DNA from: a virus
Strand: one strand, 5' to 3'
DNA length: 21,996 nt
IMG/VR virus record: IMGVR_UViG_3300047281_000143
Location: 1 to 21,996 of that record
The translations under genes were made by a program, and so were the position numbers. Under the pieces are notes generated by a model. The model was not told the DNA's origin. It was given only the letters and a program-made list of their open reading frames with translations, and did not search any database. Numbering within the stretch: the first letter of the stretch is position 1; each line of letters starts with the position of its first letter. This document shows, piece by piece, positions 1 through 20,698 of this stretch.

Positions 1-214
1 CAACCATATCCCTTGCTACTTCGCTAGTATTGTCAGTTGCCCCAACTGGGTCATCAATACCCATATCCCATTCGGATACTTTAGCGATACATTCTTTCAC
101 AATCAACTCGGCGAACTCTTCTAATGTGGCCCTTTGTACTGGTCCGATGTTAACCCAATCACTGAGGCGTTCAAATACCGGCTGGGCTAAGATGTCTTTA
201 ATTCGTTCGTTCAT
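1..214 (-). CDS. Conserved small phage protein, 3' end cut by window edge
   Basis: This is the N-terminal 71 residues of a protein whose gene runs off the left edge. It starts at an ATG preceded by a strong GAGGAG ribosome site. The protein begins MNERIKDILAQ and contains FAELIVKEC near residue 35. Both motifs recur in the protein at 300-551, so the two are tandem paralogues. Short proteins with an MNERI start and an FAELIV-EC block are common in T4-type phage early regions and have no known function. The part seen has no membrane segment and is rather acidic. No function is assigned; that it is a gene is well supported by the ribosome site and the paralogy. Confidence 0.75.
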   Translation of the reverse strand, partial: MNERIKDILAQPVFERLSDWVNIGPVQRATLEEFAELIVKECIAKVSEWDMGIDDPVGATDNTSEVARDMV

Positions 215-559: not shown

Positions 560-697
560 TTAAACTGCGACGGTTTCTACTTCAAGAATTTGTTGTGTAA
601 TAACAACACCACCGTATGCTTGCTGATATGTTTCAGCGACTGCCTTGATGAAGAATGTGTAAACTTTGCCTTTTGATGTGATCAATGTAAACTTCAT
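560..697 (-). CDS. Small 45-residue unknown protein
   Basis: Found by reading the minus strand between larger genes. The ATG at 697 follows an AAAAGGA ribosome site and a consensus promoter (739-767) with a leader of about 35 nt. The product begins MKFTLITSKGKVYTF and ends EVETVAV. It has alternating hydrophobic and polar residues, suggesting a small beta-rich or alpha/beta protein, and no membrane segment. It is not recognised. The perfect promoter, good ribosome site and snug fit before the next gene support a real early gene. Confidence 0.7.
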   Translation of the reverse strand: MKFTLITSKGKVYTFFIKAVAETYQQAYGGVVITQQILEVETVAV

Positions 698-738
698 TCT
701 AAATCCTTTTAATCGTTTATCTGTCTGTCTAAGTATCT

Positions 739-767
739 ATTATAGCAGCTTTTGGATTTAATGTCAA
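739..767 (-). promoter_or_regulatory. Sigma70-type promoter for the 45-residue gene
   Basis: On the minus strand the -35 is TTGACA (762-767), the spacer is 17 bp and the -10 is TATAAT (739-744); both hexamers match the bacterial consensus exactly. The TGA inside the -35 is also the stop codon of the upstream gene (764-766). The -35 extends as TTGACATTAAATC, shared with other promoters in this window. Confidence 0.9.
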
Positions 768-1048
768 CCGACTTGTGCGTCAATTACACGAACCAGATCC
801 TCTGCGAATACATCAGTGACCTTTGCGTCCATTTTAATCTCATATTTGCGAATACGGAAGAACTCAATGTCGTACATATCAGTACCTTCATTGTACACGA
901 TGTTAACTTGACCTTTCCAACGGGTCATTCCGCTGGACTTGAACTTTAATCCTGAACCAGTATTTACTAGCTCTTTAGCACCCCAAGCAAACAGCGCCTT
1001 AGGATCAAGAATCTTGATTTGTGAGAGGATTGTTTGTGCTACGTTCAT
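764..1048 (-). CDS. Conserved phage protein of unknown function (94 aa)
   Basis: A 94-residue protein read from an ATG with an AGGAC ribosome site and its own promoter at 1081-1109. It has an N-terminal helix (NVAQTILSQIKIL), a GAKELVNTGSGLKFK stretch and a DMYDIEFFRIRKYEIK segment. This order (ILxQL, then an MTGAK-like block, then D-x-Y-x-hydrophobic-x-F) resembles a small protein family found in many tailed phages, with no known activity. Its stop codon lies inside the -35 box of the next promoter. The product is soluble, mixed alpha/beta. No function is assigned. Confidence 0.8.
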   Translation of the reverse strand: MNVAQTILSQIKILDPKALFAWGAKELVNTGSGLKFKSSGMTRWKGQVNIVYNEGTDMYDIEFFRIRKYEIKMDAKVTDVFAEDLVRVIDAQVG

Positions 1049-1080
1049 TTTAAGTCCTGTTTGTTGCTGTCTATGTATCT

Positions 1081-1109
1081 ATTATATACCCAAACTGATT
1101 TAATGTCAA
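1081..1109 (-). promoter_or_regulatory. Sigma70-type promoter for the 94-aa gene
   Basis: TTGACA (1104-1109), 17 bp, TATAAT (1081-1086) on the minus strand. The upstream gene's TGA stop (1106-1108) is inside the -35. The promoter plus leader, with a shared CATAGACAGCAACAAACAGG stretch, is nearly identical to that at 1397-1425. Confidence 0.9.
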
Positions 1110-1363
1110 GCGAATTCGTAGAATTTTACTGTAGGATCCAGTTTTTGTAACTGAGTTGCTGCTGTCATCAATGATTTATATCGTATATTGACCTGACTAC
1201 GAGACAATTCACCGTCGCAAGTGAGCCTTTCAGGGCTGAGGTCACCGTCTAAACAATCAGCGACTTCCTGACGACCTTTAGCAGTTTGGATCTCATGTGG
1301 TTGACCTTTGACCATGACTTTCCAACGATTCTTTTGTTCTATGTATTTTAACAATGATAACAT
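1106..1363 (-). CDS. Unknown protein, 85 aa
   Basis: The ATG at 1363 follows an AGGAG ribosome site in the leader of the promoter at 1397-1425. The protein starts MLSLLKYIEQKNRWKVMVKG. Its first half holds a W-containing, basic segment and its middle a DCLDGDLSPERLTCDGELSR region with two cysteines (about residues 37 and 49). Charged residues dominate and there is no membrane span. I do not recognise a family. The dedicated promoter, the ribosome site and the stop codon shared with the next promoter's -35 make it a convincing early gene. Confidence 0.75.
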   Translation of the reverse strand: MLSLLKYIEQKNRWKVMVKGQPHEIQTAKGRQEVADCLDGDLSPERLTCDGELSRSQVNIRYKSLMTAATQLQKLDPTVKFYEFA

Positions 1364-1396
1364 AAATAACTCCTGTTTGTTGCTGTCTATGAGTCT

Positions 1397-1425
1397 ATTA
1401 TATACCCAAACCGATTTAATGTCAA
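1397..1425 (-). promoter_or_regulatory. Sigma70-type promoter for the 85-aa gene
   Basis: TTGACA (1420-1425), 17 bp, TATAAT (1397-1402) on the minus strand. The stop codon of the SleB-like gene (1422-1424) is inside the -35. Its spacer (TTAAATCGGTTTGGGTA) differs by one base from that of the promoter at 1081-1109. Confidence 0.9.
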
Positions 1426-1958
1426 GCCTTTACAGGTTTCATTTTAGCTTTAGTGTAGAAAATGTGCTGCCCAATCTGTTGTATTTTCGCAACAGGATCG
1501 CGCCACTTTGGACTGACGTATTCAGCATGGTAGAACAGTGCCTTGTCAAGTTGAGCAACACGCTCACCTTGGAGTACTCTGTGGGCAATCCATTGACTAT
1601 CCATCCAAGCTTGTCCACTAGGGGTTTCCAACTTCTTTTTCAGAGTCCAACTAAACTGACTTTTAGCGTGAACCACTTCGCATAGACTATCACCCCACTT
1701 TCCTGATTTCAAGCGATTAACGGTAACTTGAGCAACCGCATATTTACCTTCCTCGCTTTCAATCCCTGCTTCGTAATAGATATTTTTAGCTAAACACTTT
1801 TCATCTTTGACAGTATGTGCTAACTGCTCAGTGGTTTGGGTGACGAATGCTTGTTTGATTTCAGCAACATCTTGGGAGATTGTAGTCAGTTGATATTGCT
1901 GTACTCCAAGAACCGCAACTAATGCGGTACAAGTTACTCCGATTAGGATTTTGCTCAT
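1422..1958 (-). CDS. SleB-type cell wall hydrolase with N-terminal membrane anchor
   Basis: A 178-residue protein. Residues 4-20 are a hydrophobic segment, fitting a signal anchor or a SAR-type export signal. A linker follows, and then a domain from about residue 54 matching the cell wall hydrolase SleB family (Hydrolase_2). Visible family motifs are CLAKNIYYEAG (55-65, with E63 the likely catalytic glutamate), a YAVAQVTVNRL block, a CEVVHAKSQFSW block and a late FYHA...VSPKW section. Enzymes of this family cut peptidoglycan as lytic transglycosylases. In a phage this could be the endolysin, released from the membrane at lysis, or an accessory wall enzyme. It has its own promoter (1991-2019) and an AGGAAA ribosome site. 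A family assignment is strong; the lysis role is inferred. Confidence 0.85.
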   Translation of the reverse strand: MSKILIGVTCTALVAVLGVQQYQLTTISQDVAEIKQAFVTQTTEQLAHTVKDEKCLAKNIYYEAGIESEEGKYAVAQVTVNRLKSGKWGDSLCEVVHAKSQFSWTLKKKLETPSGQAWMDSQWIAHRVLQGERVAQLDKALFYHAEYVSPKWRDPVAKIQQIGQHIFYTKAKMKPVKA

Positions 1959-1990
1959 TAATCATTTCCTGTGTATGTGTGTAAGAGTAC

Positions 1991-2019
1991 ATTATACACC
2001 CAAAATGATTAAATGTCAA
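1991..2019 (-). promoter_or_regulatory. Sigma70-type promoter for the SleB-like hydrolase
   Basis: TTGACA (2014-2019), 17 bp, TATAAT (1991-1996) on the minus strand. The TGA stop of the exonuclease gene (2016-2018) is inside the -35. The spacer starts TTTAATC, close to the TTAAATC of its neighbours. Confidence 0.88.
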
Positions 2020-3038
2020 GCGTTTTCTCGTAGGATACCTGAGTAAGGAATGTTCAACCAACGGGCGTATGTGTCTGCTTGCTCACCGATTTTTGTCAAC
2101 TCAAACTTGCCAGCGAATTTCATCAGATGAAGTCCTACGCTAGGAACTGTTGCGGTCCTAACACCTTCACGGATGTTTGTGTCAACTCCTACCTTGACAT
2201 CTTCGGGTTGTGCTGTAAGGTCGATAAGGATGCGATTACGTTCATAGTCGTCACGGACACGGTGCTCAACTTCATTGTGATCCATCCATCGTTGTAACAT
2301 AATATTGTTCCAATCAAATCCTTGCTTCTCACGATCAGCATAAGCCTCAATCAGTCCAACTTTATTCTTGCTGCCCTTAGTGCGAACACCAGGATAAGCC
2401 GAGAACACATTGTCAGTACCATCGCCGCGCATACACTTCTCAAAAAGTACAAATTGTGGATCACCGAGTAACTTGGCTTCACTTACTTTAGTCTTCTTGT
2501 CAATTACTTTTACTGCTTTACCTTTGTCATCAAAGTAACCATCTACTGTGATAAGTTGGTCAGTGATACCATTGTACTGCTTTACCTTGTCAGTAATTAA
2601 TTGCAGGTAGTCTGTGTCACTTGAAATTATAAAATGTTCATCTTCAGGATGAAGATGAATAAAGCGTGCGATAAGGTCGTCTGCTTCTGCCTTAGGGTCA
2701 CGAAGTACGCTTGTGTTTGTTTTTTCTTTAAGGAACGTAGTCAATGATTCATACGTATCCCAAAATAACTGCGCTTCTTCTTTTTCAGCTACAGTTTGTG
2801 ATTGAGTATCAACTACACGATTTTTCTTATAAGGAGTATAGAAGTCTTTGCGCCAGCTGCGACCTTCGAGTAGGAATACTACATGGATATCAGGTCCGAA
2901 CTTTTTCACAATCTTGTTGACTGATGCGAATACAAGATGTAGCGCATAGCCAACTTTTTCCCAAGAGTCAGATTGTTTAGATGCCATGTGGCGCATGCGG
3001 AAGTAAAGATTAGCTGTGTCGATTAGTGCGTATTTCAT
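2016..3038 (-). CDS. rnh: 5'-3' exonuclease, T4 RNase H/FEN family
   Basis: A 340-residue protein of the flap endonuclease/5'-3' exonuclease superfamily, close in length to T4 RNase H (about 305). In T4 this enzyme removes RNA primers and 5' flaps during lagging-strand synthesis and works with the gp45 clamp and gp32. Visible metal-site features are D7 in ALIDTAN, the FLLEGRSWRKDFYTPYKKNR block (about 55-74) carrying the conserved basic residues, EADDLIARF (118-126), SSDTDYLQL (139-147) and a GDGTDN loop further on. The start is unusual: the -10 at 3045-3050 would begin the transcript at the A of the ATG, and no Shine-Dalgarno precedes it. The clamp gene at 21057-21788 supports a replication role. 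The symbol follows T4 usage. Confidence 0.88.
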   Translation of the reverse strand: MKYALIDTANLYFRMRHMASKQSDSWEKVGYALHLVFASVNKIVKKFGPDIHVVFLLEGRSWRKDFYTPYKKNRVVDTQSQTVAEKEEAQLFWDTYESLTTFLKEKTNTSVLRDPKAEADDLIARFIHLHPEDEHFIISSDTDYLQLITDKVKQYNGITDQLITVDGYFDDKGKAVKVIDKKTKVSEAKLLGDPQFVLFEKCMRGDGTDNVFSAYPGVRTKGSKNKVGLIEAYADREKQGFDWNNIMLQRWMDHNEVEHRVRDDYERNRILIDLTAQPEDVKVGVDTNIREGVRTATVPSVGLHLMKFAGKFELTKIGEQADTYARWLNIPYSGILRENA

Positions 3039-3044
3039 TTTTCT

Positions 3045-3073
3045 ATTATAGTCGTATATTATGCTAAAGTCAA
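3045..3073 (-). promoter_or_regulatory. Promoter predicted to give a leaderless exonuclease mRNA
   Basis: TTGACT (3068-3073), 17 bp, TATAAT (3045-3050) on the minus strand. Seven bases after the -10 is position 3038, the A of the exonuclease start codon. The sequence between is AGAAAA, so there is no room for a ribosome site. Confidence 0.82.
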
Positions 3074-3076
3074 TAG

Positions 3077-3511
3077 TTAAAAGCCTTCAAGGTACTTTTC
3101 TGGGTACTTAATACAGTTTTCCATAAAGTTTTTCAACTTTGGGCTTGTCAATGTCAATGGAAGATGTTCTTTTTTCACAATAAAAATGCTAGGATTTCTT
3201 GCAATTTTCTTTCGATAGTAATCCTCTAGCATTTTCAAGGTGACGCCAGTTGATGCCTTATCGATATATTCAGTACTATCGAATCCATTGAATTTAGAAA
3301 AATATTTTTTAAAATATGCCTTACCGTCATCTTCAAGCGTTTCAACAATTCTACCGAGCCCGGGGCGGCTGATACATAGAAAGTGTACAGTGGAAATATT
3401 TCCACCTTTACTGTGACCAACCAGGCGGTCACCTATATCCTCAGCAATCCCCGGTTTGAGATATGTTACACGACCGTTGATTTCGGCGATGTATAATCCC
3501 AACAAGTTCAT
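3077..3511 (-). CDS. GIY-YIG-like (T5orf172/Mug113-type) small protein
   Basis: A 144-residue protein. Its first 35 residues, GLYIAEINGRVTYLKPGIAEDIGDRLVGH, have the pattern of GIY-YIG superfamily T5orf172/Mug113 domains: a Y-hydrophobic strand, a K-x-GIA strand, then an arginine and histidine in D-R-L-x-x-H. Later there is an IVETLEDDGKAYF helix and a DSTEYID segment, where family members have a helix and an (S/T)E-(Y/F) motif with the metal-binding glutamate. If active it would be a nuclease-fold protein of unknown target; other phage members may only bind DNA. The stop lies just upstream of the exonuclease promoter, and the start overlaps the end of the DGQH gene by 4 bp. The family call is by motif reading only. 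Confidence 0.55.
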   Translation of the reverse strand: MNLLGLYIAEINGRVTYLKPGIAEDIGDRLVGHSKGGNISTVHFLCISRPGLGRIVETLEDDGKAYFKKYFSKFNGFDSTEYIDKASTGVTLKMLEDYYRKKIARNPSIFIVKKEHLPLTLTSPKLKNFMENCIKYPEKYLEGF

Positions 3512-4827
3512 ACTTTAATAAAGTCTTGTAGTGTTTGATCTAGTGCGTGAAAGATTGTGTAACCTTGCTCACTGTAATCATCCATAAACATTTTGGAGAT
3601 GCTGTTAAATGTACCCCCGTGTTCATAGTACATATACAATAACAATGCTAGCGGCGCATCGGGCGGGTATGACGCTGGAGTTTTCTCACCTGGATACGCA
3701 TTACGAAACCATTCTTTGTATGTAACGTCAGTGAGAGTGCGCAATTTAGCAGGAGAACCAACTACGTTTTTAATGATATTACCTAGGGTGACTACGAAAT
3801 CTTTGACTGGTGCGCTAGTCAATGACTTAGAACCCTTCAGCTTGTGACGCAAGTTTACCATTGGTAACACCTCTACTGAGTCAACACTTCGGTCGTCCCA
3901 ATTCAATTGATGTACTGCACAGAACCAATGTACTTCTTCCTCAGACAAATCTTTTAGCAAATCAACCCGTTTGAAAGCACCCGGCTTGCCAGAGTTAATA
4001 TCATCCTTTTCGTGAATTGGGATGATGTTGTAACTTTCCATGATAACTTGTTGCGCATAAGCATCTTCGTATTTGTCTTCTGAGCAGATTTCATCTGGAC
4101 TATCTTGACGTTTAGCCAGCACATAGTTTTTCCACTTGTCAAAGTAAGCAAGTTTTAATTTGTCATCACCATTGATGCCCAAGAAGTGTTCCCGTGCGAA
4201 TGTGAAATTATCAAACTCGACAACTTGACATTTGATTTTAACATCCAGCCAATTCTCAGATAGAACTGTTGGAGCAAAGAATCCCCATTTAGCCCATACA
4301 CCATATGTGATTGCGGTGTGCTGTCCGTCAATCACATAATATGCATATTTCGTACCAATCTTAATCTTCAACACATTCACATATTGAACTTTTTTCTCGT
4401 CATATCCAACTAGAATATCCTTCACATGCTTATGAGCCACTGGACGTTGTACTGACAACGCACTCCATAACTCACTGAGTGGAATTTCTTTATAATTAGG
4501 CAATGCGTCCCAAGAAACAATTTTATTCTTAACTTGTTTAAGCGTCAACTTACCTGCAGGACCATCAGTAAATTCATTTACCAAATTTTCCAAAGTTTTA
4601 CCATCATGATCACCGGGCTTTTTATCTAAAGCGTTCTCTGGACGATCACTAGGATCAACTTGATCTGCTTCCACGTCATACACAAATACGTCAATAGCTG
4701 ACATTGTATTGTATGCGGTGTTGTATGGTACTACCCTTTTAGTAGTAGTTTTTTTGGGTGCTTTAACAGCTTTAACAGTAGCTGTAATAGGCACAAGTTT
4801 TGGAGTTTGTGATTTAAATGTCAACAT
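3508..4827 (-). CDS. DGQH-motif (ParB/DndB-like) protein
   Basis: A 439-residue protein with a basic, low-complexity N-terminus (about 1-35, rich in K, T and V). A core follows containing YYVIDGQHTAITYGVW (163-178) and then a CQVVEF...FLGINGDDKLKLAYFDKW block. A DGQH(R) motif followed by a helix and a conserved N-x-x-x-K stretch is typical of the ParB/sulfiredoxin-like fold seen in DGQHR-domain proteins, including DndB of phosphorothioate DNA modification. Its substrate is unknown. It has its own promoter (4861-4889) with a TACAAT -10. It could be a DNA-binding or nuclease-like protein. I am sure it is a gene and moderately sure of the fold. Confidence 0.6.
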   Translation of the reverse strand: MLTFKSQTPKLVPITATVKAVKAPKKTTTKRVVPYNTAYNTMSAIDVFVYDVEADQVDPSDRPENALDKKPGDHDGKTLENLVNEFTDGPAGKLTLKQVKNKIVSWDALPNYKEIPLSELWSALSVQRPVAHKHVKDILVGYDEKKVQYVNVLKIKIGTKYAYYVIDGQHTAITYGVWAKWGFFAPTVLSENWLDVKIKCQVVEFDNFTFAREHFLGINGDDKLKLAYFDKWKNYVLAKRQDSPDEICSEDKYEDAYAQQVIMESYNIIPIHEKDDINSGKPGAFKRVDLLKDLSEEEVHWFCAVHQLNWDDRSVDSVEVLPMVNLRHKLKGSKSLTSAPVKDFVVTLGNIIKNVVGSPAKLRTLTDVTYKEWFRNAYPGEKTPASYPPDAPLALLLYMYYEHGGTFNSISKMFMDDYSEQGYTIFHALDQTLQDFIKV

Positions 4828-4860: not shown

Positions 4861-4889
4861 ATTGTATCAGAAAATGGATTTAATGTCAA
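4861..4889 (-). promoter_or_regulatory. Sigma70-type promoter for the DGQH gene
   Basis: TTGACA (4884-4889), 17 bp, TACAAT (4861-4866) on the minus strand, with the shared TTGACATTAAATC extension. The upstream stop (TAA, 4893-4895) is 3 bp before the -35. Confidence 0.85.
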
Positions 4890-5194: not shown

Positions 5195-5223
5195 ATTATA
5201 ACAGCATTCGGGTTAAATGTCAA
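5195..5223 (-). promoter_or_regulatory. Sigma70-type promoter for the 89-aa gene
   Basis: TTGACA (5218-5223), 17 bp, TATAAT (5195-5200) on the minus strand. The upstream TAA stop (5229-5231) is 5 bp before the -35. Confidence 0.88.
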
Positions 5224-5228
5224 CCGTT

Positions 5229-5666
5229 TTAACTGACTTCAGTGCGCCCGCCACCTAAATCTTTTGTACGGACCACTCGCTCGTCACGGTTAGTCGGGTC
5301 AGCTTGATTCTGCTCATAGATTTCTAAAACTATATTTCGGCAAATTGTGTGAAACCAACGATCCACGATCATTGTGTCAGTATCATCATCCTGCATTTTA
5401 TAACCGGCTTTGATTAAATTCAACAGAAATTTATCATTCCAATCTAATTCAAAAGAACCATTATGAATATTATGTGGATCAACATCTACACTTAGAATCG
5501 CAACATATGGATCACCTTTTGCTGTTGCCGCATCTTTTGCAGAAGTATCAATCTCCGGCTTTTTTGCTACTTCGGGAACTTTAATCTCTTTTGGTTTACG
5601 AGGCTTACTTACTTTAACAACCTTCTCAGGCTTCTTTGAAAATATATTTTTTAATTTATTGAACAT
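5229..5666 (-). CDS. Unknown protein with basic N-terminal tail (145 aa)
   Basis: A 145-residue protein in two parts. Residues 1-45 are rich in lysine, proline and valine (KKPEKVVKVSKPRKPKEIK), probably disordered and nucleic-acid- or protein-binding. The rest, from about residue 50, is a compact acidic domain with AILSVDVDP, FELDWNDKFLLNLIKAGY and a WFHTICRNIVLEIYEQ helix. The start overlaps the end of the UVDE gene by 11 bp, so the two are in one transcript. I do not recognise an enzyme family. The pairing with a repair endonuclease may be chance. Confidence 0.75.
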   Translation of the reverse strand: MFNKLKNIFSKKPEKVVKVSKPRKPKEIKVPEVAKKPEIDTSAKDAATAKGDPYVAILSVDVDPHNIHNGSFELDWNDKFLLNLIKAGYKMQDDDTDTMIVDRWFHTICRNIVLEIYEQNQADPTNRDERVVRTKDLGGGRTEVS

Positions 5667-6687
5667 TATTTACCCTATCTGTATATGTATCATGTAGCTT
5701 GAAGCTGGCAATATTTTTCCATTTAGATTCACACATTATATCAAAATTATCAGCAAATGACAACGCCCACTGGTTAACCTCATCATTCCAGTATGAGTCA
5801 GAATGTGCCCGCAGTTTTTGCTTGTTGAATCCAGCGGCAATTAGCGCGTCATGGTCGGGTGAAGTGGTAGGTGAATGACCGATGAGTACATCTTCGCGGC
5901 TAACACTGTAATGCATAGTAGGGCGCACACCACGCCAACTGTCAATAACCCTCTGAGTATTTTCGCTATCATGTTTAATATAAGTTCCTGTTTTAATCCA
6001 ATTGTGATGTACATCTAATACGATGGGAAGCAAATCACTTAGTGTGAGACAATCATCAAGTCCCCAACTCATTTCTTCGTTTTCAATGGTGATACAGTTG
6101 CGGGCTTCTGGAGATAGTCTTTTGTAGGCACTTCGGATGCCTTCGGGACCTTGTTTACCGGAGATGTGGACGTTGATTTTAAGGTCTTGGAAACGTCTAC
6201 CAAACCCCATCCAATTGGCCATTGAGGCATGATATTCAAACTCCTTGATACTGTTGATAACTATGCCTTCATTTATACTTGCCAAAACAGTAAACTGTCC
6301 GGGGTGAAATGAAAGACGAACATCTGCTGCTCTGGCAGCATCACCGACTTTAGCAAACAATGTTTCTATACGTGAAAGAACATCGGGCTTTTTATAAAAG
6401 TATTCCCAATTAGCATGAGTGAAAGCAATAAGAATATCACTGGTCAATCGCACCATGCGTAGTTCAGGCTTTAGTAAACCAACTCGCTTTACCAGATTGT
6501 AAGTGTTAGTGATATTTTTTTCAAGCATATCCCACAACTTTTGCTCAGCTACTTCACGAGTCTGGCGATTCAACCAAGAAATAGTAGTTCCACTGGTGTT
6601 CAGTTCAGGGATGCTTACTATTTCTTTTTTAGAATTTAGTTCTGAAAATTTACAAGCAAAGCCAATTCTTTTAATAAGTTGTGTCAA
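5656..6687 (-). CDS. uvsE: UV damage endonuclease, UVDE/UvsE family
   Basis: A 343-residue protein matching the UVDE family, a TIM-barrel metal endonuclease that nicks DNA 5' of UV photoproducts. Visible features: RIGFACKF near the N-terminus (7-14), MVRLTSDILIAF (78-89), RLSFHPGQFTVLAS (124-137) with the histidine of a metal site, INVHISGKQG (171-180), ITIENEEMSW (199-208) and LPIVLDVHHNW (220-230). The metal and catalytic ligands of the family lie in the HPGQ, ENE and DVHH blocks. The only plausible start is a TTG (6687) with a GTGGA sequence about 9 nt upstream; a TAG stop in frame lies just before. It would let the phage repair UV-damaged DNA independently of host excision repair. Confidence 0.88.
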   Translation of the reverse strand: MTQLIKRIGFACKFSELNSKKEIVSIPELNTSGTTISWLNRQTREVAEQKLWDMLEKNITNTYNLVKRVGLLKPELRMVRLTSDILIAFTHANWEYFYKKPDVLSRIETLFAKVGDAARAADVRLSFHPGQFTVLASINEGIVINSIKEFEYHASMANWMGFGRRFQDLKINVHISGKQGPEGIRSAYKRLSPEARNCITIENEEMSWGLDDCLTLSDLLPIVLDVHHNWIKTGTYIKHDSENTQRVIDSWRGVRPTMHYSVSREDVLIGHSPTTSPDHDALIAAGFNKQKLRAHSDSYWNDEVNQWALSFADNFDIMCESKWKNIASFKLHDTYTDRVNNVQ

Positions 6688-6715: not shown

Positions 6716-7291
6716 TTAAATACCGCGTTGGTCGTTATCACGAAGTCGGGTGATGCCTGCTAATCTAGCAATCCATCCTAATTCATCACGCTCCGATTCA
6801 AAAACAAAGGTGTTAGCTTGTTTGTTGTTTCGCAGCCGAGTGTACATATCACCCATTTGCCCTGGTTGAATCTCACCCAAGTTGTATTCAGACCCATCTT
6901 TGTTAATCAATCTAGTACCGTCTAAGTCTTTGACAAGCACAGCATCCTGATTAAATGCATTACCTAGCTTGTGCATATCCTGAGCGAATGCTGAATTTTT
7001 AGCTGAGCCGATAACAAAAATACTATCTTCTTTAACTGCTAATTCGTGTTCAGTACCTTGATTTTCGATCCAATGTCCGTCAACGAAAAAGAATCCATAC
7101 CCAAGTCTTTTAAGCTCACTGGCTAATTGTTTATTGCGATCAACATTTTTATGATACACTTCCCTAGCTGTTAGCTCAGGATCATAATCGTGTCGTCCAC
7201 GGAATGCCGTTAAAATAGCTACGGAATGGTCTGGGTTATTAAAATGCTGCCACACCCGACTAAGGCTTGTTTCTGTTAGATTAATTGTCAT
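6716..7291 (-). CDS. Unknown protein, possibly DUF3293-related (191 aa)
   Basis: A 191-residue protein. The order AILTAFRG (25-32), then NKQLASELKRLGYGFFFVDGHW, then KEDSIFVIG is reminiscent of DUF3293-type proteins (a TA-x-x-P strand, an N-x-x-L helix pair, and an E-(D/E)-S-hydrophobic strand), but I cannot confirm this by reading. The second half (GNAFNQDAVLVKDLDGTRLINKDG) is likely alpha/beta. No function can be given. The promoter at 7298-7326 would start the transcript at the A of this ATG and no ribosome site is present, so translation would be leaderless. The stop is 28 bp before the UVDE start, suggesting one transcript. Confidence 0.7.
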   Translation of the reverse strand: MTINLTETSLSRVWQHFNNPDHSVAILTAFRGRHDYDPELTAREVYHKNVDRNKQLASELKRLGYGFFFVDGHWIENQGTEHELAVKEDSIFVIGSAKNSAFAQDMHKLGNAFNQDAVLVKDLDGTRLINKDGSEYNLGEIQPGQMGDMYTRLRNNKQANTFVFESERDELGWIARLAGITRLRDNDQRGI

Positions 7292-7297
7292 ACATGT

Positions 7298-7326
7298 ATT
7301 ATATCATATTGCGTTATATTTGTCAA
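7298..7326 (-). promoter_or_regulatory. Promoter predicted to give a leaderless mRNA
   Basis: TTGACA (7321-7326), 17 bp, TATAAT (7298-7303) on the minus strand. The seventh base after the -10 is 7291, the A of the start codon of the 191-aa gene. Confidence 0.85.
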
Positions 7327-8699: not shown

Positions 8700-8929
8700 T
8701 TCGTTAAATTCCAAATAATAAATTCATGTTTATCAATGTGATAATCATCGCTCATAGTCTCGCCGCGGTTAGTGACCTGGTAAGTACCTTTGTAACACCG
8801 TGTAAGCCAAAGTCGTTTCCCGGTTAGAAAACAAGTTCTTGGCCACAGACACAAATGTAAATGCCAGTCACCTGCTCTGGATAGTCCCCAGTCTTGTGAA
8901 GGAGGTGACTGCATTACTGGGTCAAGCAT
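8696..8929 (-). CDS. Small Trp/Cys-rich unknown protein (77 aa)
   Basis: The ATG at 8929 overlaps the TAA stop of queE (TAATG), and the stop overlaps the ATG of the glycosyltransferase, so it is tightly coupled on both sides. A GTG four codons upstream (8941) is possible but less likely. The 77 residues are rich in W, C, H and L in the middle (about 19-47, WHLHLCLWPRTCFLTG then KRLWLTRCY) and polar at the end (DDYHIDKHEFIIW). This W-plus-beta-strand style is seen in small phage proteins of unknown role. The hydrophobic part is too broken by charge for a membrane span. No function is assigned. Confidence 0.7.
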   Translation of the reverse strand: MLDPVMQSPPSQDWGLSRAGDWHLHLCLWPRTCFLTGKRLWLTRCYKGTYQVTNRGETMSDDYHIDKHEFIIWNLTK

Positions 8930-9798
8930 TAAGTGCCCCACTCGTTTTTGAACAACGGCACCTGGAGTCTGTCGCTATAACGCAGACCAGCTTTGACAGC
9001 AAAGTCTGCTACTCTACGATTATTCAGTGCGTAAACACTTTCTGTTCCACCAACTGGCATCAGGTAAACTGGTCCTTTAAATCCTGCAGCACGATATTCA
9101 CGCGCAGCACTAATCGCATCAGCAAAGTCTTCTTCAGTGGCAATTACGAACTTCAGATAAGTGTAGCCTACATCTTCATAAGACAACACAATCTCTGGAC
9201 AAATTGCTTCACTGTGTTTTTCGCCACTGCCGCTTAGCTTTGGACTAACTGAGAATGTTAGCTTGTCGTAACCACGAGCCTTACGAGTATCGTGGTATCT
9301 AGAATTCAATGTCCAGTTCAATAGATATTGTCTGAATTCAGGCGATAGTTCTTGTGAACCGTTTGTTTCAAATGTCAGTTCCTTGAGTCCAATCATCTTA
9401 GTGTGACTGAGTAGATCAGGATAGGCACGCTGCCAGCCTAGTAGCGGTTCACCACCTGTGATAACCAAGTGTTCATCAACCCAGCTATCAAATGGCAATA
9501 TATCCATAATGCCACTAACAATACTATCGGAATCGAGCACAGGACTAAGATGTTTAAAACGAGGGTCCCAAGATGCATACGAGTCACAGCCGCTACTGAC
9601 AAGCGGTAAGGATTTATAATTCGTAAAACTCTCTGCGTCAATTTTGTCTCGCTCAACACTTAATTCTCCTTTAGGCATTCCAAATCCACCGCATGTAAAG
9701 TTACATCCGTATGTTCTAAGGAACACAGAAGGAACTCCCATGAAGCGACCTTCTCCTTGGATACTATAGAACAATTCACTTATCTTTAATTTTGACAT
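8929..9798 (-). CDS. queE: 7-carboxy-7-deazaguanine synthase (QueE), divergent radical SAM
   Basis: A 289-residue radical SAM enzyme. QueE turns 6-carboxytetrahydropterin into 7-carboxy-7-deazaguanine, the ring-contraction step of the queuosine/7-deazaguanine pathway. Family signs are FYSIQGEGRFMGVPSVFLR (10-28), the cluster-binding cysteines, VITGGEPLLGW (112-122), the SAM-binding GGEP, ELTFETNGSQ (140-149) and a SVSPKLSGSG block (183-192). The cysteines are odd: C32 and C36 (CNFTC) are followed not by x-x-C but, after 34 residues, by C71 (SSGCDSYASW). The ATG at 9798 is chosen because AAAGGTGA sits just upstream; the upstream GTG at 9834 lies at the promoter -10. Its product would feed DpdA. 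FolE and QueD are also in the window. Confidence 0.88.
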   Translation of the reverse strand: MSKLKISELFYSIQGEGRFMGVPSVFLRTYGCNFTCGGFGMPKGELSVERDKIDAESFTNYKSLPLVSSGCDSYASWDPRFKHLSPVLDSDSIVSGIMDILPFDSWVDEHLVITGGEPLLGWQRAYPDLLSHTKMIGLKELTFETNGSQELSPEFRQYLLNWTLNSRYHDTRKARGYDKLTFSVSPKLSGSGEKHSEAICPEIVLSYEDVGYTYLKFVIATEEDFADAISAAREYRAAGFKGPVYLMPVGGTESVYALNNRRVADFAVKAGLRYSDRLQVPLFKNEWGT

Positions 9799-12573: not shown

Positions 12574-12696
12574 TTAACTTTTAGTTTTACGCCAGATTAC
12601 TTCAAATGTATCTGGTTTTAACATAACTGCCCATCCTTGTGGAATTGTTTCTGGATACCAATGCTTCTTACCGTCGCTGTGTTTGTAGAGTTTCAT
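12574..12696 (-). CDS. 40-residue unknown protein
   Basis: The ATG overlaps the stop of the QueD gene (ATGA, 12693-12696), and the TAA stop abuts the next ATG. The product begins MKLYKHSDGKKHWYPET, contains two further tryptophans (QGWAVMLK, VIWRK) and is strongly basic. It resembles no family I know. The overlap on both sides gives good support for translation. It is probably an accessory early protein. Confidence 0.65.
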   Translation of the reverse strand: MKLYKHSDGKKHWYPETIPQGWAVMLKPDTFEVIWRKTKS

Positions 12697-13190
12697 GCGA
12701 ACAAGTCCTCATTCCATTCACGGTGACCTTCTCTGAATGCCATATTAGCTTGTGTCTCACGGACCTCTACCTTGTAGCACCATAGACGCTTTGCTTCACC
12801 TTCGCCCCACATTTCAGGAATGTAAACACCATTGACATACTTGTAAAGCATGTCGCTTAGACCTTCGCAACCTAGTTTAGGTAGCACTACGATCTTAGCC
12901 ATATTCTTTTCTTGTAACAGCTTGAATGTTTCCATTTCTGGATCATCTTGTGCTACGATTAGTGTGTGGTCAAACTGATCTTCTAAGGTTTTCTTCAGTT
13001 CTTTGAGTCCACCGTAGTCAGCGGCCCAATTGCGGACATCTAAATCGTTTGTACCGAAATAGAACTTCATACTAAATGAATAGCCGTGAATTAGATTACA
13101 ATGACTGTCACTACGCCATTGACGATAAGCGCACGGGAACGCATCGTGATACTCTTTAGTACTTGTGTACTTGTATGATACTGGTTGCAT
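12693..13190 (-). CDS. queD: QueD/6-pyruvoyltetrahydropterin synthase homologue, altered zinc site
   Basis: A 165-residue T-fold protein. QueD converts dihydroneopterin triphosphate from FolE to 6-carboxytetrahydropterin, the QueE substrate. Family blocks: FPCAYRQW (18-25) in place of the usual F-x-(A/C)AHR, SHCNLIHGYSF (29-39) for C-x-x-(L/I)HGH, AADYGGLKELK (56-66) for the (V)DFG-x-LK helix, LEDQFDHTLI (69-78) for the catalytic DH, CEGLSDML (108-115) and VEVRET (141-146). Of the three zinc histidines only H35 is present as His; the other two positions are Y22 and Y37. HGY is, as I recall, usual in phage QueD, but Y22 is a single-base change from CAT to TAT. The promoter at 13208-13236 and an AGGAG ribosome site precede it. 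Confidence 0.85.
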   Translation of the reverse strand: MQPVSYKYTSTKEYHDAFPCAYRQWRSDSHCNLIHGYSFSMKFYFGTNDLDVRNWAADYGGLKELKKTLEDQFDHTLIVAQDDPEMETFKLLQEKNMAKIVVLPKLGCEGLSDMLYKYVNGVYIPEMWGEGEAKRLWCYKVEVRETQANMAFREGHREWNEDLFA

Positions 13191-14182: not shown

Positions 14183-14406
14183 ACCAATTCCTCAACAATA
14201 CCTAAAACTTCTGCAACAATTAGCAGTGTGCCTGCTTCGGGGAAGCCTACCATAATCAATGATGTGCCTGCGCCAATGCGTAGTACACTCTTTACAAGGC
14301 TAACATAAAAATGTCCCTTGCTTGTATCTTTAGGTTGAATATTGAGCTTAGGTGTATCTGCGCAATCACAATCTCTGCCTTGATTACATTTTTGATTACA
14401 ACTCAT
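14179..14406 (-). CDS. Membrane protein with N-terminal cysteine cluster (75 aa)
   Basis: The ATG overlaps the folE stop (TAATG). The first 15 residues, MSCNQKCNQGRDCDC, carry four cysteines (C3, C7, C13, C15). A polar linker follows and then two hydrophobic stretches (about 35-54 and 56-72) split by a G-F-P-E-A-G turn, which would make a membrane hairpin or one long span. A CX3CX5CXC cluster could bind zinc or iron, or serve in thiol exchange; this is inferred. No family is recognised. Confidence 0.68.
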   Translation of the reverse strand: MSCNQKCNQGRDCDCADTPKLNIQPKDTSKGHFYVSLVKSVLRIGAGTSLIMVGFPEAGTLLIVAEVLGIVEELV

Positions 14407-15080
14407 TATCGTCCCCTTGCTAGTTGATAGAACTCTGCTCGTGCTGCTGGATCACTTTTGAAGCCACCGCCTAGTTTACTAGTGACAGTTGAGCTACCCA
14501 CATCCTCTACGCCGCGCGATTTTACACAATAATGTTGGGCATCAATCATAACTGCTACATCTTCTGTATCCAGAATATATTGAAGGGCGTAGAATACTTG
14601 CTCAGTTAGTCGTTCTTGAATTTGAGGACGTTTGCTGAAGTATTCCACGATACGATTGATCTTGCTTAATCCAAGTACTTTATCTTTTGGTACATATGCA
14701 ACAGTAGCAAGACCGTCAATCACCACAAAGTGATGTTCACAGTTTGATTGTACATTAACATTGCGTTCGCACACCATTTCATCGTACTTCATTTTGTTAT
14801 CAACAGTAGTACATTTAGGGAATGCTTCATAGTCAAGACCCCAAAATATTTCGTTGACATACATCTTAGCAACACGCTTTGGTGTATCCATAAGGCTGTC
14901 ATCACTCAGATCAAGACCCAGTGTCTTCATAATCTGGTGCATGTATCCTTCGATAGCATCAATCTTTTCTTTGCGATCCCAATTATTTGGATTCATTGGA
15001 GTTTCGACTCCCATCTTAACTAGATGTTCGTGAACTCGTTGACCCAACTCTGGATCGCATTTTGTTTTATTGTATGACAT
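14406..15080 (-). CDS. folE: GTP cyclohydrolase I
   Basis: A 224-residue protein with the full FolE layout and length. FolE opens and rearranges GTP to 7,8-dihydroneopterin triphosphate, the first step toward folate and 7-deazaguanines. Visible: DTPKRVAKMY (65-74), SNCEHHFVVIDG (112-123) with zinc ligands C114 and H117, YVPKDKVLGLSKINRIVEYFSKR (129-151), QERLTEQ (155-161) and AQHYCVKSRG (181-190) with zinc ligand C185. All catalytic residues expected from the bacterial enzyme appear present. In a phage with QueD, QueE and DpdA it most likely supplies the pterin precursor for a modified DNA base, though extra folate for nucleotide synthesis is possible. An AAAGGAAGG ribosome site precedes it, and an inverted repeat lies at 15114-15141. 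Confidence 0.93.
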   Translation of the reverse strand: MSYNKTKCDPELGQRVHEHLVKMGVETPMNPNNWDRKEKIDAIEGYMHQIMKTLGLDLSDDSLMDTPKRVAKMYVNEIFWGLDYEAFPKCTTVDNKMKYDEMVCERNVNVQSNCEHHFVVIDGLATVAYVPKDKVLGLSKINRIVEYFSKRPQIQERLTEQVFYALQYILDTEDVAVMIDAQHYCVKSRGVEDVGSSTVTSKLGGGFKSDPAARAEFYQLARGR

Positions 15081-18692: not shown

Positions 18693-19145
18693 TTAGATAG
18701 CGAGTTGATTAACAGGTTTAAAATTATTGTAATAGATCGTGGCACCATTCTCACCGTCTTCTGAGACTGTGATTTCAATGTCACGATCAGGATAACGACT
18801 TGCGATAATCTCAAAAAGATCATCACTCATCATTTCACACGACTTGAAGTTCAGTTCAAGAATGCCTTGAGAGTATTGATTCTCCAGCCATCGTTTGAAT
18901 TGAATAAATTCAATATCCCTGTCATTGTGAAATACTTGCACAGCCACGTTAAAGTGAAAGACGTGACGATGCGGGGTTGCTAAAAAGCTAACATCATACT
19001 CATCTCCTGTTGCCAGTGATGGGTCTGTTGCTGCTGCTGGGTACTTATGAATACCTTCTTTTTGAAAAGTAACAAAGATCGTGCGCTTTGCTTGATCTTT
19101 AATACGTGTTCGTTTTTCTGTCAATGATTGATTCTGTTGGTTCAT
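18693..19145 (-). CDS. Divergent T-fold (QueD-like) protein, DpdL candidate
   Basis: A 150-residue protein whose reading follows the T-fold (PTPS/QueD) pattern: RTIFVTFQKEGIHKYPAAA (21-39) in the position of the F-x-AAHR block, ATPHRHVFHFNVAVQV (56-71) for the HGH-strand block, NDRDIEFIQFKRWLEN (74-89) for the DFG-x-LK helix, LNFKSCEMMSDDLFEII (98-114) for the P-T-x-E-N-x-A helix with E104 as the substrate-binding glutamate, and IEITVSEDGENGATIYY (123-139) for the closing V-x-V-x-E strand. Histidines 33, 59, 61 and 64 are candidate metal ligands. It is directly linked to DpdA by a TAATG overlap. A second QueD-type protein beside DpdA could modify 7-carboxy-7-deazaguanine, the role I recall being proposed for DpdL. 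The fold is inferred by pattern. Confidence 0.6.
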   Translation of the reverse strand: MNQQNQSLTEKRTRIKDQAKRTIFVTFQKEGIHKYPAAATDPSLATGDEYDVSFLATPHRHVFHFNVAVQVFHNDRDIEFIQFKRWLENQYSQGILELNFKSCEMMSDDLFEIIASRYPDRDIEITVSEDGENGATIYYNNFKPVNQLAI

Positions 19146-20698
19146 TAAATATCCCCGAGTACTTTACTAATTTCGTCATCGCTGTCCAATTCTTCTTCGT
19201 CAGCAATCTGGTCAGATTCTTCTTCAGTAAACAAGGCAGTAAACATAGTAGACGAATTCACAGTTTTTTTACCACTGTAGCCTTGACTACCACTTTGAAA
19301 TTGCATCCAATATCTTGAATATGATTCAATCATATCTAGACTTTTCTGACGATCCTTCAAAGCAAATATTTCATTAATTACTTCACTAAATACGATTTTC
19401 TCAAATGTATCATTAGTCAGCATCTTTGGAATAACACCTTGATCATAACGACGATTTGCTTCCTGTACTGCTGTCATATGTGACCACACATTGTGACCCT
19501 GTAGTAAAGTATAACTGAGTGTATCCCAACTAGTTTTAGTTTCTTTTCCATGCTGACCAATAAATCCTTGACCTCTATAACACAGATCACTTAGTATCAT
19601 TTTATCAGTAATTGGACTGTCTGTAAAGATTTTATGGATACCTTCAGCTAAAACAGCATCTTTGAATTTACGGTTATCAGTAGAGTACGCTTTCTTTTCA
19701 GCCGTTTTCTCCATACTGTATGACCACTTCTTATTGTGTTCAATATTCGTATTGAAATATGACAAGCCCTTAGCAGCACTAAAGAACGGACTAGCACAAT
19801 CAAATGTAATCTGTAAATTTGAGTTATGGTGTTTACGAATCGCACGTTGTACATCACTGAAAAGCACAGCATATTCCAGAATACTTGTACCCAGACAGTG
19901 AATCAGATCATGCTTACCTTCTTCTAACAATCCGTCATGGATAATGTTTACCAACCGTTTAAGGAATAAGTGAACATCAATCTTGTTCTGACCTCCCATG
20001 GCCCATCCATTGAAGTGAGTCTCTGGGTAGATATTTGGATCACAATACTTCTTCATTTCATCATACCAGGCATCACTTTGTGTATGATTCAATCCCTGTA
20101 ATACATTCAGAAATTTACATTTACCCGAACGATTAGCAATGAAGTACTCGTTGTTAATGTGAGTGGCAGAGATGGCATCTTCAATAGTTTTGATTCCATG
20201 AAGTGATTTACCATTCTTGTCTTTCATACCATATGTACGCAACGACTGTGAGGGGATATCAAGACACATACCATAGTCCATGTATGTGTCCATCCAGTTC
20301 AACACTGCTTTACGCTTGATCATGGCCTTAGGACAAGCAGGATCTTTCCAGTCAGCAGGCCATTGACCTTTAAGAATCTGGAAACCACCCGAGTCACCAA
20401 GCATGAATGTGCCTGCTTCACGATCACGGATAATGCTTTCACACGGATCAACCTTAGTTGTATCTAAATTAGCGTGACCCGCTGAGTACAAGCCCCATTT
20501 ATAATAAAACAAACTTTTTTGACTATTAAGAAAGTTCAGAGTCTCAACATCTTGAATCTGCGCAGGCAATCTTGCTTGATCGAAATAATTCAGACCCGCG
20601 CGTTGTTTTCCTAGACCCGCAATATAGAATGAACTAACTGCTGGTAGAAATAGTGCCCAGTCTGGATTGTGTTTAGCTGTGAGATTATCTTGTTCCAT
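19145..20698 (-). CDS. dpdA: DpdA-type DNA 7-deazaguanine transglycosylase
   Basis: A 517-residue protein with tRNA-guanine transglycosylase (TGT) motifs: FMLGDSGGFQILKG (98-111), with D102 in the place of the TGT general acid, NVLQGLN (198-204), GWAMGGQ (231-237) in place of GGLAVGE, and TFDCASPFFSAAKG (298-311), where D300 fits the TGT nucleophile of FDCVLPTR. The four-cysteine zinc site of bacterial TGT is not seen. TGT swaps guanine for a 7-deazaguanine in tRNA; DpdA enzymes do so in DNA. FolE, QueD and QueE in the same window make a DNA role likely. It is linked to the upstream gene and to the T-fold gene by TAATG overlaps at both ends. The acidic C-terminal tail (TEEESDQIADEEELDSDDE) is distinctive. 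Confidence 0.85.
   Translation of the reverse strand: MEQDNLTAKHNPDWALFLPAVSSFYIAGLGKQRAGLNYFDQARLPAQIQDVETLNFLNSQKSLFYYKWGLYSAGHANLDTTKVDPCESIIRDREAGTFMLGDSGGFQILKGQWPADWKDPACPKAMIKRKAVLNWMDTYMDYGMCLDIPSQSLRTYGMKDKNGKSLHGIKTIEDAISATHINNEYFIANRSGKCKFLNVLQGLNHTQSDAWYDEMKKYCDPNIYPETHFNGWAMGGQNKIDVHLFLKRLVNIIHDGLLEEGKHDLIHCLGTSILEYAVLFSDVQRAIRKHHNSNLQITFDCASPFFSAAKGLSYFNTNIEHNKKWSYSMEKTAEKKAYSTDNRKFKDAVLAEGIHKIFTDSPITDKMILSDLCYRGQGFIGQHGKETKTSWDTLSYTLLQGHNVWSHMTAVQEANRRYDQGVIPKMLTNDTFEKIVFSEVINEIFALKDRQKSLDMIESYSRYWMQFQSGSQGYSGKKTVNSSTMFTALFTEEESDQIADEEELDSDDEISKVLGDI

What the first reader, a model, noticed from the sequence alone, without database searches (positions are those of the whole stretch)
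739..2019. Four promoters in a row whose -35 box contains the upstream gene's stop codon
At 764, 1106, 1422 and 2016 the TGA stop of one gene is the TGA of TTGACA for the next promoter. Each has an exact 17-bp spacer and a perfect TATAAT. The same geometry four times running is not chance; it implies that gene ends and promoters move or were selected as a unit, giving each gene its own strong early promoter with no extra DNA.
Basis: seen in the sequence. Interest (0 to 1): 0.75.

Follow-up and report, generated by a model that had tools for sequence, protein, structure and literature searches.

The report
Phage promoters doubling as gene stops
In a group of uncultivated large phages, many small genes are separated by copies of one roughly 60-base promoter sequence whose first element also contains the stop codon of the gene before it; the four copies in this window are real, and the pattern recurs widely because the promoter offers any gene running into it in the right frame a ready-made stop.

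Summary
On the minus strand, four exact TTGACA-17-TATAAT promoters (767-739, 1109-1081, 1425-1397, 2019-1991) each contain the in-frame TGA stop of the preceding gene. Relatives show this is clade-wide: of 341 distinct promoters lying between genes, 132 (39%) have this geometry, and 166 of 1,027 TGA-ending genes end in TTGACA (about 1% expected), 158 of them with a -10 box at exactly 17 bp. The promoters are copies of one dispersed cassette: -35, conserved spacer, -10, conserved leader, ending at the Shine-Dalgarno. Genes joined by a cassette change neighbours far more often than genes joined without one. But overlapping cassettes are not exchanged more than non-overlapping ones, unrelated phages show the same overlap (17 of 74), and it saves only a few bases. 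Best explanation: interchangeable promoter cassettes in which TTGACA supplies a backup stop in one frame, so genes drift or recombine into using it. Near relatives show the transition: TAAATTTGACA versus AAAATTTGACA (two extra residues), and a 272-bp gene gain/loss precisely at a GG|TTGA junction. Closest known idea: mobile regulatory cassettes of T4-type phages. Promoter activity and 'early' timing remain untested.

The parts
739..767 (-). promoter 1, TTGACA-17-TATAAT; TGA at 766-764 is the stop of ORF 764-1048
   Evidence: exact match; stop offset +3
698..738 (-). cassette leader (5' UTR) 1 to the start codon of ORF 560-697
   Evidence: -10 to ATG 41 nt
1081..1109 (-). promoter 2; TGA at 1108-1106 is the stop of ORF 1106-1363
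1049..1080 (-). cassette leader 2 to ORF 764-1048
   Evidence: 32 nt
1397..1425 (-). promoter 3; TGA at 1424-1422 is the stop of ORF 1422-1958
1364..1396 (-). cassette leader 3 to ORF 1106-1363
   Evidence: 33 nt
1991..2019 (-). promoter 4; TGA at 2018-2016 is the stop of ORF 2016-3038
1959..1990 (-). cassette leader 4 to ORF 1422-1958
   Evidence: 32 nt
560..697 (-). 45-aa ORF, unknown
   Evidence: no Pfam or PHROG hit
764..1048 (-). 94-aa ORF, unknown; in L006 an unrelated gene lies between its homologue and the promoter
   Evidence: phrog_9437 E 1e-6
1106..1363 (-). 85-aa ORF, unknown, followed by different genes in different relatives
1422..1958 (-). cell wall hydrolase / endolysin-like protein
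   Evidence: PF07486 E 7e-24; phrog_938 endolysin E 3e-26
2016..3038 (-). 5'-3' exonuclease / RNase H-like protein
   Evidence: PF02739; 47% identity to PA5oct exonuclease
5195..5223 (-). related cassette, stop 6 bases upstream (not overlapping)
4861..4889 (-). related cassette (TACAAT), stop 4 bases upstream
3045..3073 (-). promoter TTGACT-17-TATAAT, ATG 6 nt after the -10, probably leaderless mRNA of the exonuclease
7298..7326 (-). exact promoter, ATG 6 nt after the -10, probably leaderless mRNA of ORF 6716-7291

Best explanation
The window carries copies of a dispersed promoter cassette (consensus TTGACAwTAAATgg.TTTGGgtaTATAATAgA.TCTTA.ACAGTTAA...AAGGA, then ATG) that gives small accessory genes their own sigma70-type promoter and leader, and across which genes are gained, lost and exchanged. 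The -35 TTGACA contains TGA in one of the three frames, while the other two frames are open for roughly the next 12-15 codons in the cassette consensus. A gene joined to the cassette in the TGA frame therefore has a harmless backup stop: its own stop can be lost by mutation, deletion or recombination at the cassette edge, leaving the TGA of the -35 box as the stop. Repeated gene exchange plus this backup makes the arrangement common. Shown: cassette family, overlap frequency, frame bias, neighbour exchange, two transitional cases. Inferred: that the promoters are active and host-sigma70-driven, that homologous or microhomology recombination is the agent, and that the genes are early.
For: Overlap in 132 of 341 distinct promoter junctions and 28 of 75 in loci found by protein only, without use of the promoter. 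Stops within -10..+3 fall in the TGA frame in 169 of 242 (5e-31 against one third); about 76 of 108 when one junction per gene family is used. Only 20 of 152 run-in genes pass the -35. Information content starts at the -35 and ends near the Shine-Dalgarno. Protein-ascertained promoters match the core spacer in 41 of 80, unrelated ones in 1 of 195. With upstream genes 80-97% identical, downstream families differ in 79/107 promoter junctions against 261/942 without promoter (per-family 0.63 vs 0.38, p=0.002). Transition by point change...RLAA-stop TAAATTTGACA versus ...RLAAKI AAAATTTGACA. Transition by indel: L006 against the window, 97% identical flanks, 272 bp carrying an extra ORF exactly at GG|TTGA, that ORF itself ending GGTTGACA.
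Against: No transcription data. Accessory regions are variable for other reasons and also promoter-rich, so neighbour exchange is correlated with, not proved to be caused by, the cassettes. Part of the related loci were found by searching for the spacer, which inflates its conservation (the protein-only subset was used as a check). Orthologous junctions keep spacers slightly more alike (3.56 differences) than other junctions of the same genome (3.92), so there is no strong homogenisation. My gene calls come from a simple codon-usage caller.
Confidence: 0.68

Rival explanations
1. Pure compaction: selection to shorten the genome pushes each stop codon as close to the next promoter as possible, and TGA inside TTGACA is simply the closest possible position; no role for cassette exchange.
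For: Unrelated phages show the same overlap, 17 of 74 junctions, and the same frame bias, 23 of 35; other gene joints overlap by 4 or 1 bases.
Against: The saving is only a few bases while a roughly 60-bp leader cassette is retained; overlap is more frequent in this clade (39% vs 23%, p=0.011); recent gene gain or loss occurs exactly at the junction.
Confidence: 0.2
2. Stop and promoter are selected as one functional unit, for example because ending translation at the -35 or read-through from the upstream promoter regulates the next gene.
For: Overlap junctions lack terminator-like hairpins (1 of 132, against 18 of 87 where the stop is more than 8 nt upstream), so read-through transcripts are expected.
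Against: The same gene families occur with overlapping and non-overlapping stops; non-overlapping junctions close to the promoter also lack terminators (1 of 102); no conserved pairing of upstream and downstream genes.
Confidence: 0.08
3. The conserved spacer and leader are a binding site for a phage regulator or recombinase, and copies are kept alike by that function rather than by copying. (Not exclusive of the backup-stop account.)
For: Spacer information of 1.0-1.7 bits per position in TAAAT and TTTGGG is much higher than promoter function needs; cassettes are more alike within than between genomes (0 of 500 permutations).
Against: No regulator identified; part of the conservation is ascertainment; leader conservation is equally explained by common descent and translation needs.
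Confidence: 0.2

Closest known systems
Mobile regulatory cassettes (promoter early stem-loop elements) of T4-type phages, Arbiol et al. 2010, Genome Biol Evol 2:140 (title seen in the reference list of PMC4177764; the paper itself is not held; details from memory)
   Same: Repeated intergenic promoter modules between small accessory genes, associated with gene shuffling
   Different: Here overlap junctions have no stem-loop, the cassette contains the stop codon of the upstream gene, and the phages resemble Arenbergviridae (PA5oct) rather than T4
Host-takeover early promoters of Bacillus phage SPO1
   Same: Many strong housekeeping-sigma promoters in front of small genes
   Different: Five near-consensus promoters found in 25 kb; at most one or two have a long open TGA frame, and no shared spacer like this one
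Pseudomonas phage PA5oct, nearest cultured relative found by protein
   Same: Shares exonuclease (47%), sliding clamp (31%), FolE, QueD and QueE genes
   Different: Few consensus promoters, a handful with a possible stop overlap, no conserved cassette
Bacterial promoters that overlap the end of the upstream gene (for example ampC within the frd operon end of E. coli; from memory)
   Same: Promoter element shared with coding sequence
   Different: A single locus, not a repeated interchangeable cassette

Membership tests
Sigma70-type promoter | TTGACA and TATAAT hexamers, 17-bp spacing | tested here: met
   four exact; 381 of 387 exact non-genic promoters in relatives have 17 bp
Sigma70-type promoter | transcription start about 7 nt downstream of the -10 | not testable with these tools
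   no RNA data for these uncultivated phages
T4-type mobile regulatory cassettes | promoter in intergenic region, dispersed repeated copies | tested here: met
T4-type mobile regulatory cassettes | association with shuffling of neighbouring genes | tested here: met
T4-type mobile regulatory cassettes | stem-loop (terminator) next to the promoter | tested here: not met
   1 of 132 overlap junctions, 18 of 87 distant junctions; only the 40 nt upstream of the -35 were scanned
T4-type mobile regulatory cassettes | located in T4-type phages | tested here: inconclusive
   nearest cultured relatives by exonuclease and clamp are PA5oct and other jumbo phages

The most novel reading that the evidence does not exclude
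The -35 box acts as a universal seam: because it supplies the stop of any upstream gene in the right frame and the promoter of any downstream gene, these phages can plug genes in and out by recombination between cassettes with neither neighbour damaged, an integron-like gene exchange system without an integrase.
Probability: 0.3. Interest if true: 0.65.

Novelty: new variant of a known kind. Interest (0 to 1): 0.48.

Why it matters
It shows how large phages can give dozens of small accessory genes individual promoters while freely exchanging them, and it points to a general rule, seen also in unrelated phages, that the TGA in the -35 consensus serves as a backup stop codon. This helps promoter and gene-end annotation, and makes gene gain and loss in phage accessory regions traceable to exact breakpoints. 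A limited paper search did not find the -35/stop sharing described as a recurrent feature.

Tried and rejected
Chance: rejected. Megablast of the window against cultured phages: no match. Cassette core pattern in bacterial genomes: none, so no host hint. Strong concerted evolution of cassettes: not supported, orthologous junctions are slightly more alike than same-genome ones. Overlap junctions as special recombination sites compared with other promoter junctions: not supported. Family-averaged neighbour exchange over the wide 50-97% identity range showed no significant difference; the effect appears in close relatives, where neighbour change is not yet saturated. The Arbiol 2010 paper could not be read, and phage T5 was not available under the accession tried.

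Full report
What is there. The window is a 21,996-bp virus contig with almost all genes on the minus strand. Four exact TTGACA-17-TATAAT promoters lie at 767-739, 1109-1081, 1425-1397 and 2019-1991 on the minus strand. In each, the T-TGA-CA of the -35 box holds the in-frame TGA stop of the preceding ORF (764-1048, 1106-1363, 1422-1958, 2016-3038). The start codon follows the -10 by 32-41 nt. Four further near-consensus promoters of the window (5223, 4889, 3073, 7326) do not overlap a stop, but the preceding stop ends only 4-9 bases upstream of the -35.

What virus it is. The exonuclease gene (PF02739) is 47% identical to that of Pseudomonas phage PA5oct, with similar matches in other jumbo phages; the sliding clamp is also closest to such phages. 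FolE, QueD and a QueE-like radical SAM protein are shared with PA5oct. No cultured phage matches at DNA level. The host is unknown.

Is it more than chance. Relatives were collected by protein and by cassette pattern, and genes were called with a codon-usage script. In a non-redundant set, 166 of 1,027 TGA-ending genes end in TTGACA, against about 0.95% expected from the context of TAA-ending genes, and 158 of them have a TATAAT-like box at exactly 17 bp. Of 341 distinct exact promoters with genes on both sides, 132 (39%) have the stop in the -35; in loci found by protein alone the figure is 28 of 75, so the pattern search did not create it.

It is a repeated cassette. Across junctions the conserved sequence starts at the -35 (preceded by AAAAGG when the stop lies further upstream) and ends at the Shine-Dalgarno: TTGACAwTAAATgg.TTTGGgtaTATAATAgA.TCTTA.ACAGTTAA...AAGGA. 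The core spacer is present in 41 of 80 protein-ascertained promoters but 1 of 195 promoters of unrelated viral contigs. Larger contigs carry about 8-30 exact promoters each, often clustered and with near-identical spacers. Cassettes are more alike within a genome than between genomes (0 of 500 permutations), though orthologous junctions remain slightly more alike still, so this is not strong homogenisation.

Why the stop sits in the -35. The -35 box reads as a stop in one frame only; the cassette consensus is open for 12-15 codons in the other two (read directly from the consensus). Stops close to the -35 fall in the TGA frame in 169 of 242 cases (p 5e-31), about 70% when each gene family is counted once. 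Unrelated phages show the same trend: 17 of 74 overlaps, 23 of 35 in frame. So TTGACA appears to work as a backup stop in general. Two intermediates support this. In one gene family, members ending ...RLAA-TAA-ATTTGACA coexist with members in which TAA has become AAA and the protein runs two residues further to the TGA of the -35. And contig L006, 97% identical to the window on both sides, differs at the 767 junction by 272 bp holding one extra ORF: the 94-aa gene there ends GTTGGATGA, the extra ORF ends AAAGGTTGACA, and the promoter and the 45-aa gene downstream are the same. The more distant relative L007 has the direct junction as in the window, which favours a gain in L006.

Gene exchange. 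When upstream genes are 80-97% identical between contigs, the downstream gene belongs to a different family in 79 of 107 cassette junctions, against 261 of 942 junctions without a promoter (per-family means 0.63 and 0.38, p=0.002); limiting the test to small genes leaves the difference. Overlap and non-overlap cassettes do not differ (0.71 and 0.75). The 85-aa gene of the window, for instance, is followed by different genes in different contigs. Exchange therefore goes with the promoter cassette, not with the stop overlap as such.

Mechanism and limits. The most likely picture is a set of interchangeable promoter-leader cassettes, with the overlap produced by the backup-stop property plus gene exchange. 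Shown here: anatomy, frequency, frame bias, exchange, transitional states. Inferred: promoter activity, host sigma70 use, early timing, and recombination as the agent. Overlap junctions almost never have a terminator-like hairpin upstream (1 of 132), so read-through from upstream promoters is expected.

Comparison with what is known. The nearest idea is the mobile regulatory cassettes proposed for T4-type phages (Arbiol et al. 2010; title seen through PMC4177764; content from memory since the paper is not held). Dispersed promoters and gene shuffling agree; the stem-loop does not. PA5oct lacks the cassette, and SPO1's early region lacks a shared spacer of this kind. I therefore call it a new variant of a known kind: it works like those cassettes, but is not filed as a member because the stem-loop was tested and not met.

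Noticed in passing
window 3073-3045 and 7326-7298: Promoters with only 6 nt between the -10 box and ATG, predicting leaderless mRNAs; the same spacing recurs in relatives, often in front of the exonuclease gene.
   Followed up: partly
window 2-214 and 300-551: Two tandem small ORFs both starting MNERIK; a family with this start is the largest in the related loci, 179 members among 201 loci, function unknown.
   Followed up: no
window 6716-7291: Match to the S-adenosylmethionine lyase family (PF23780, E 2.5e-8), as in known anti-restriction SAM lyases of phages.
   Followed up: no
window 8929-9798, 12693-13190, 14406-15080, 19145-20698: QueE-like radical SAM, PTPS/QueD, GTP cyclohydrolase I and a 517-aa protein without Pfam match, suggesting a 7-deazaguanine DNA modification pathway.
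   Followed up: no
window 5656-6687: UV endonuclease UvdE homologue (PF03851, E 3e-35).
   Followed up: no
window 3508-4827: Weak match to a ParB-like partition protein family (phrog_1033, E 4e-6).
   Followed up: no
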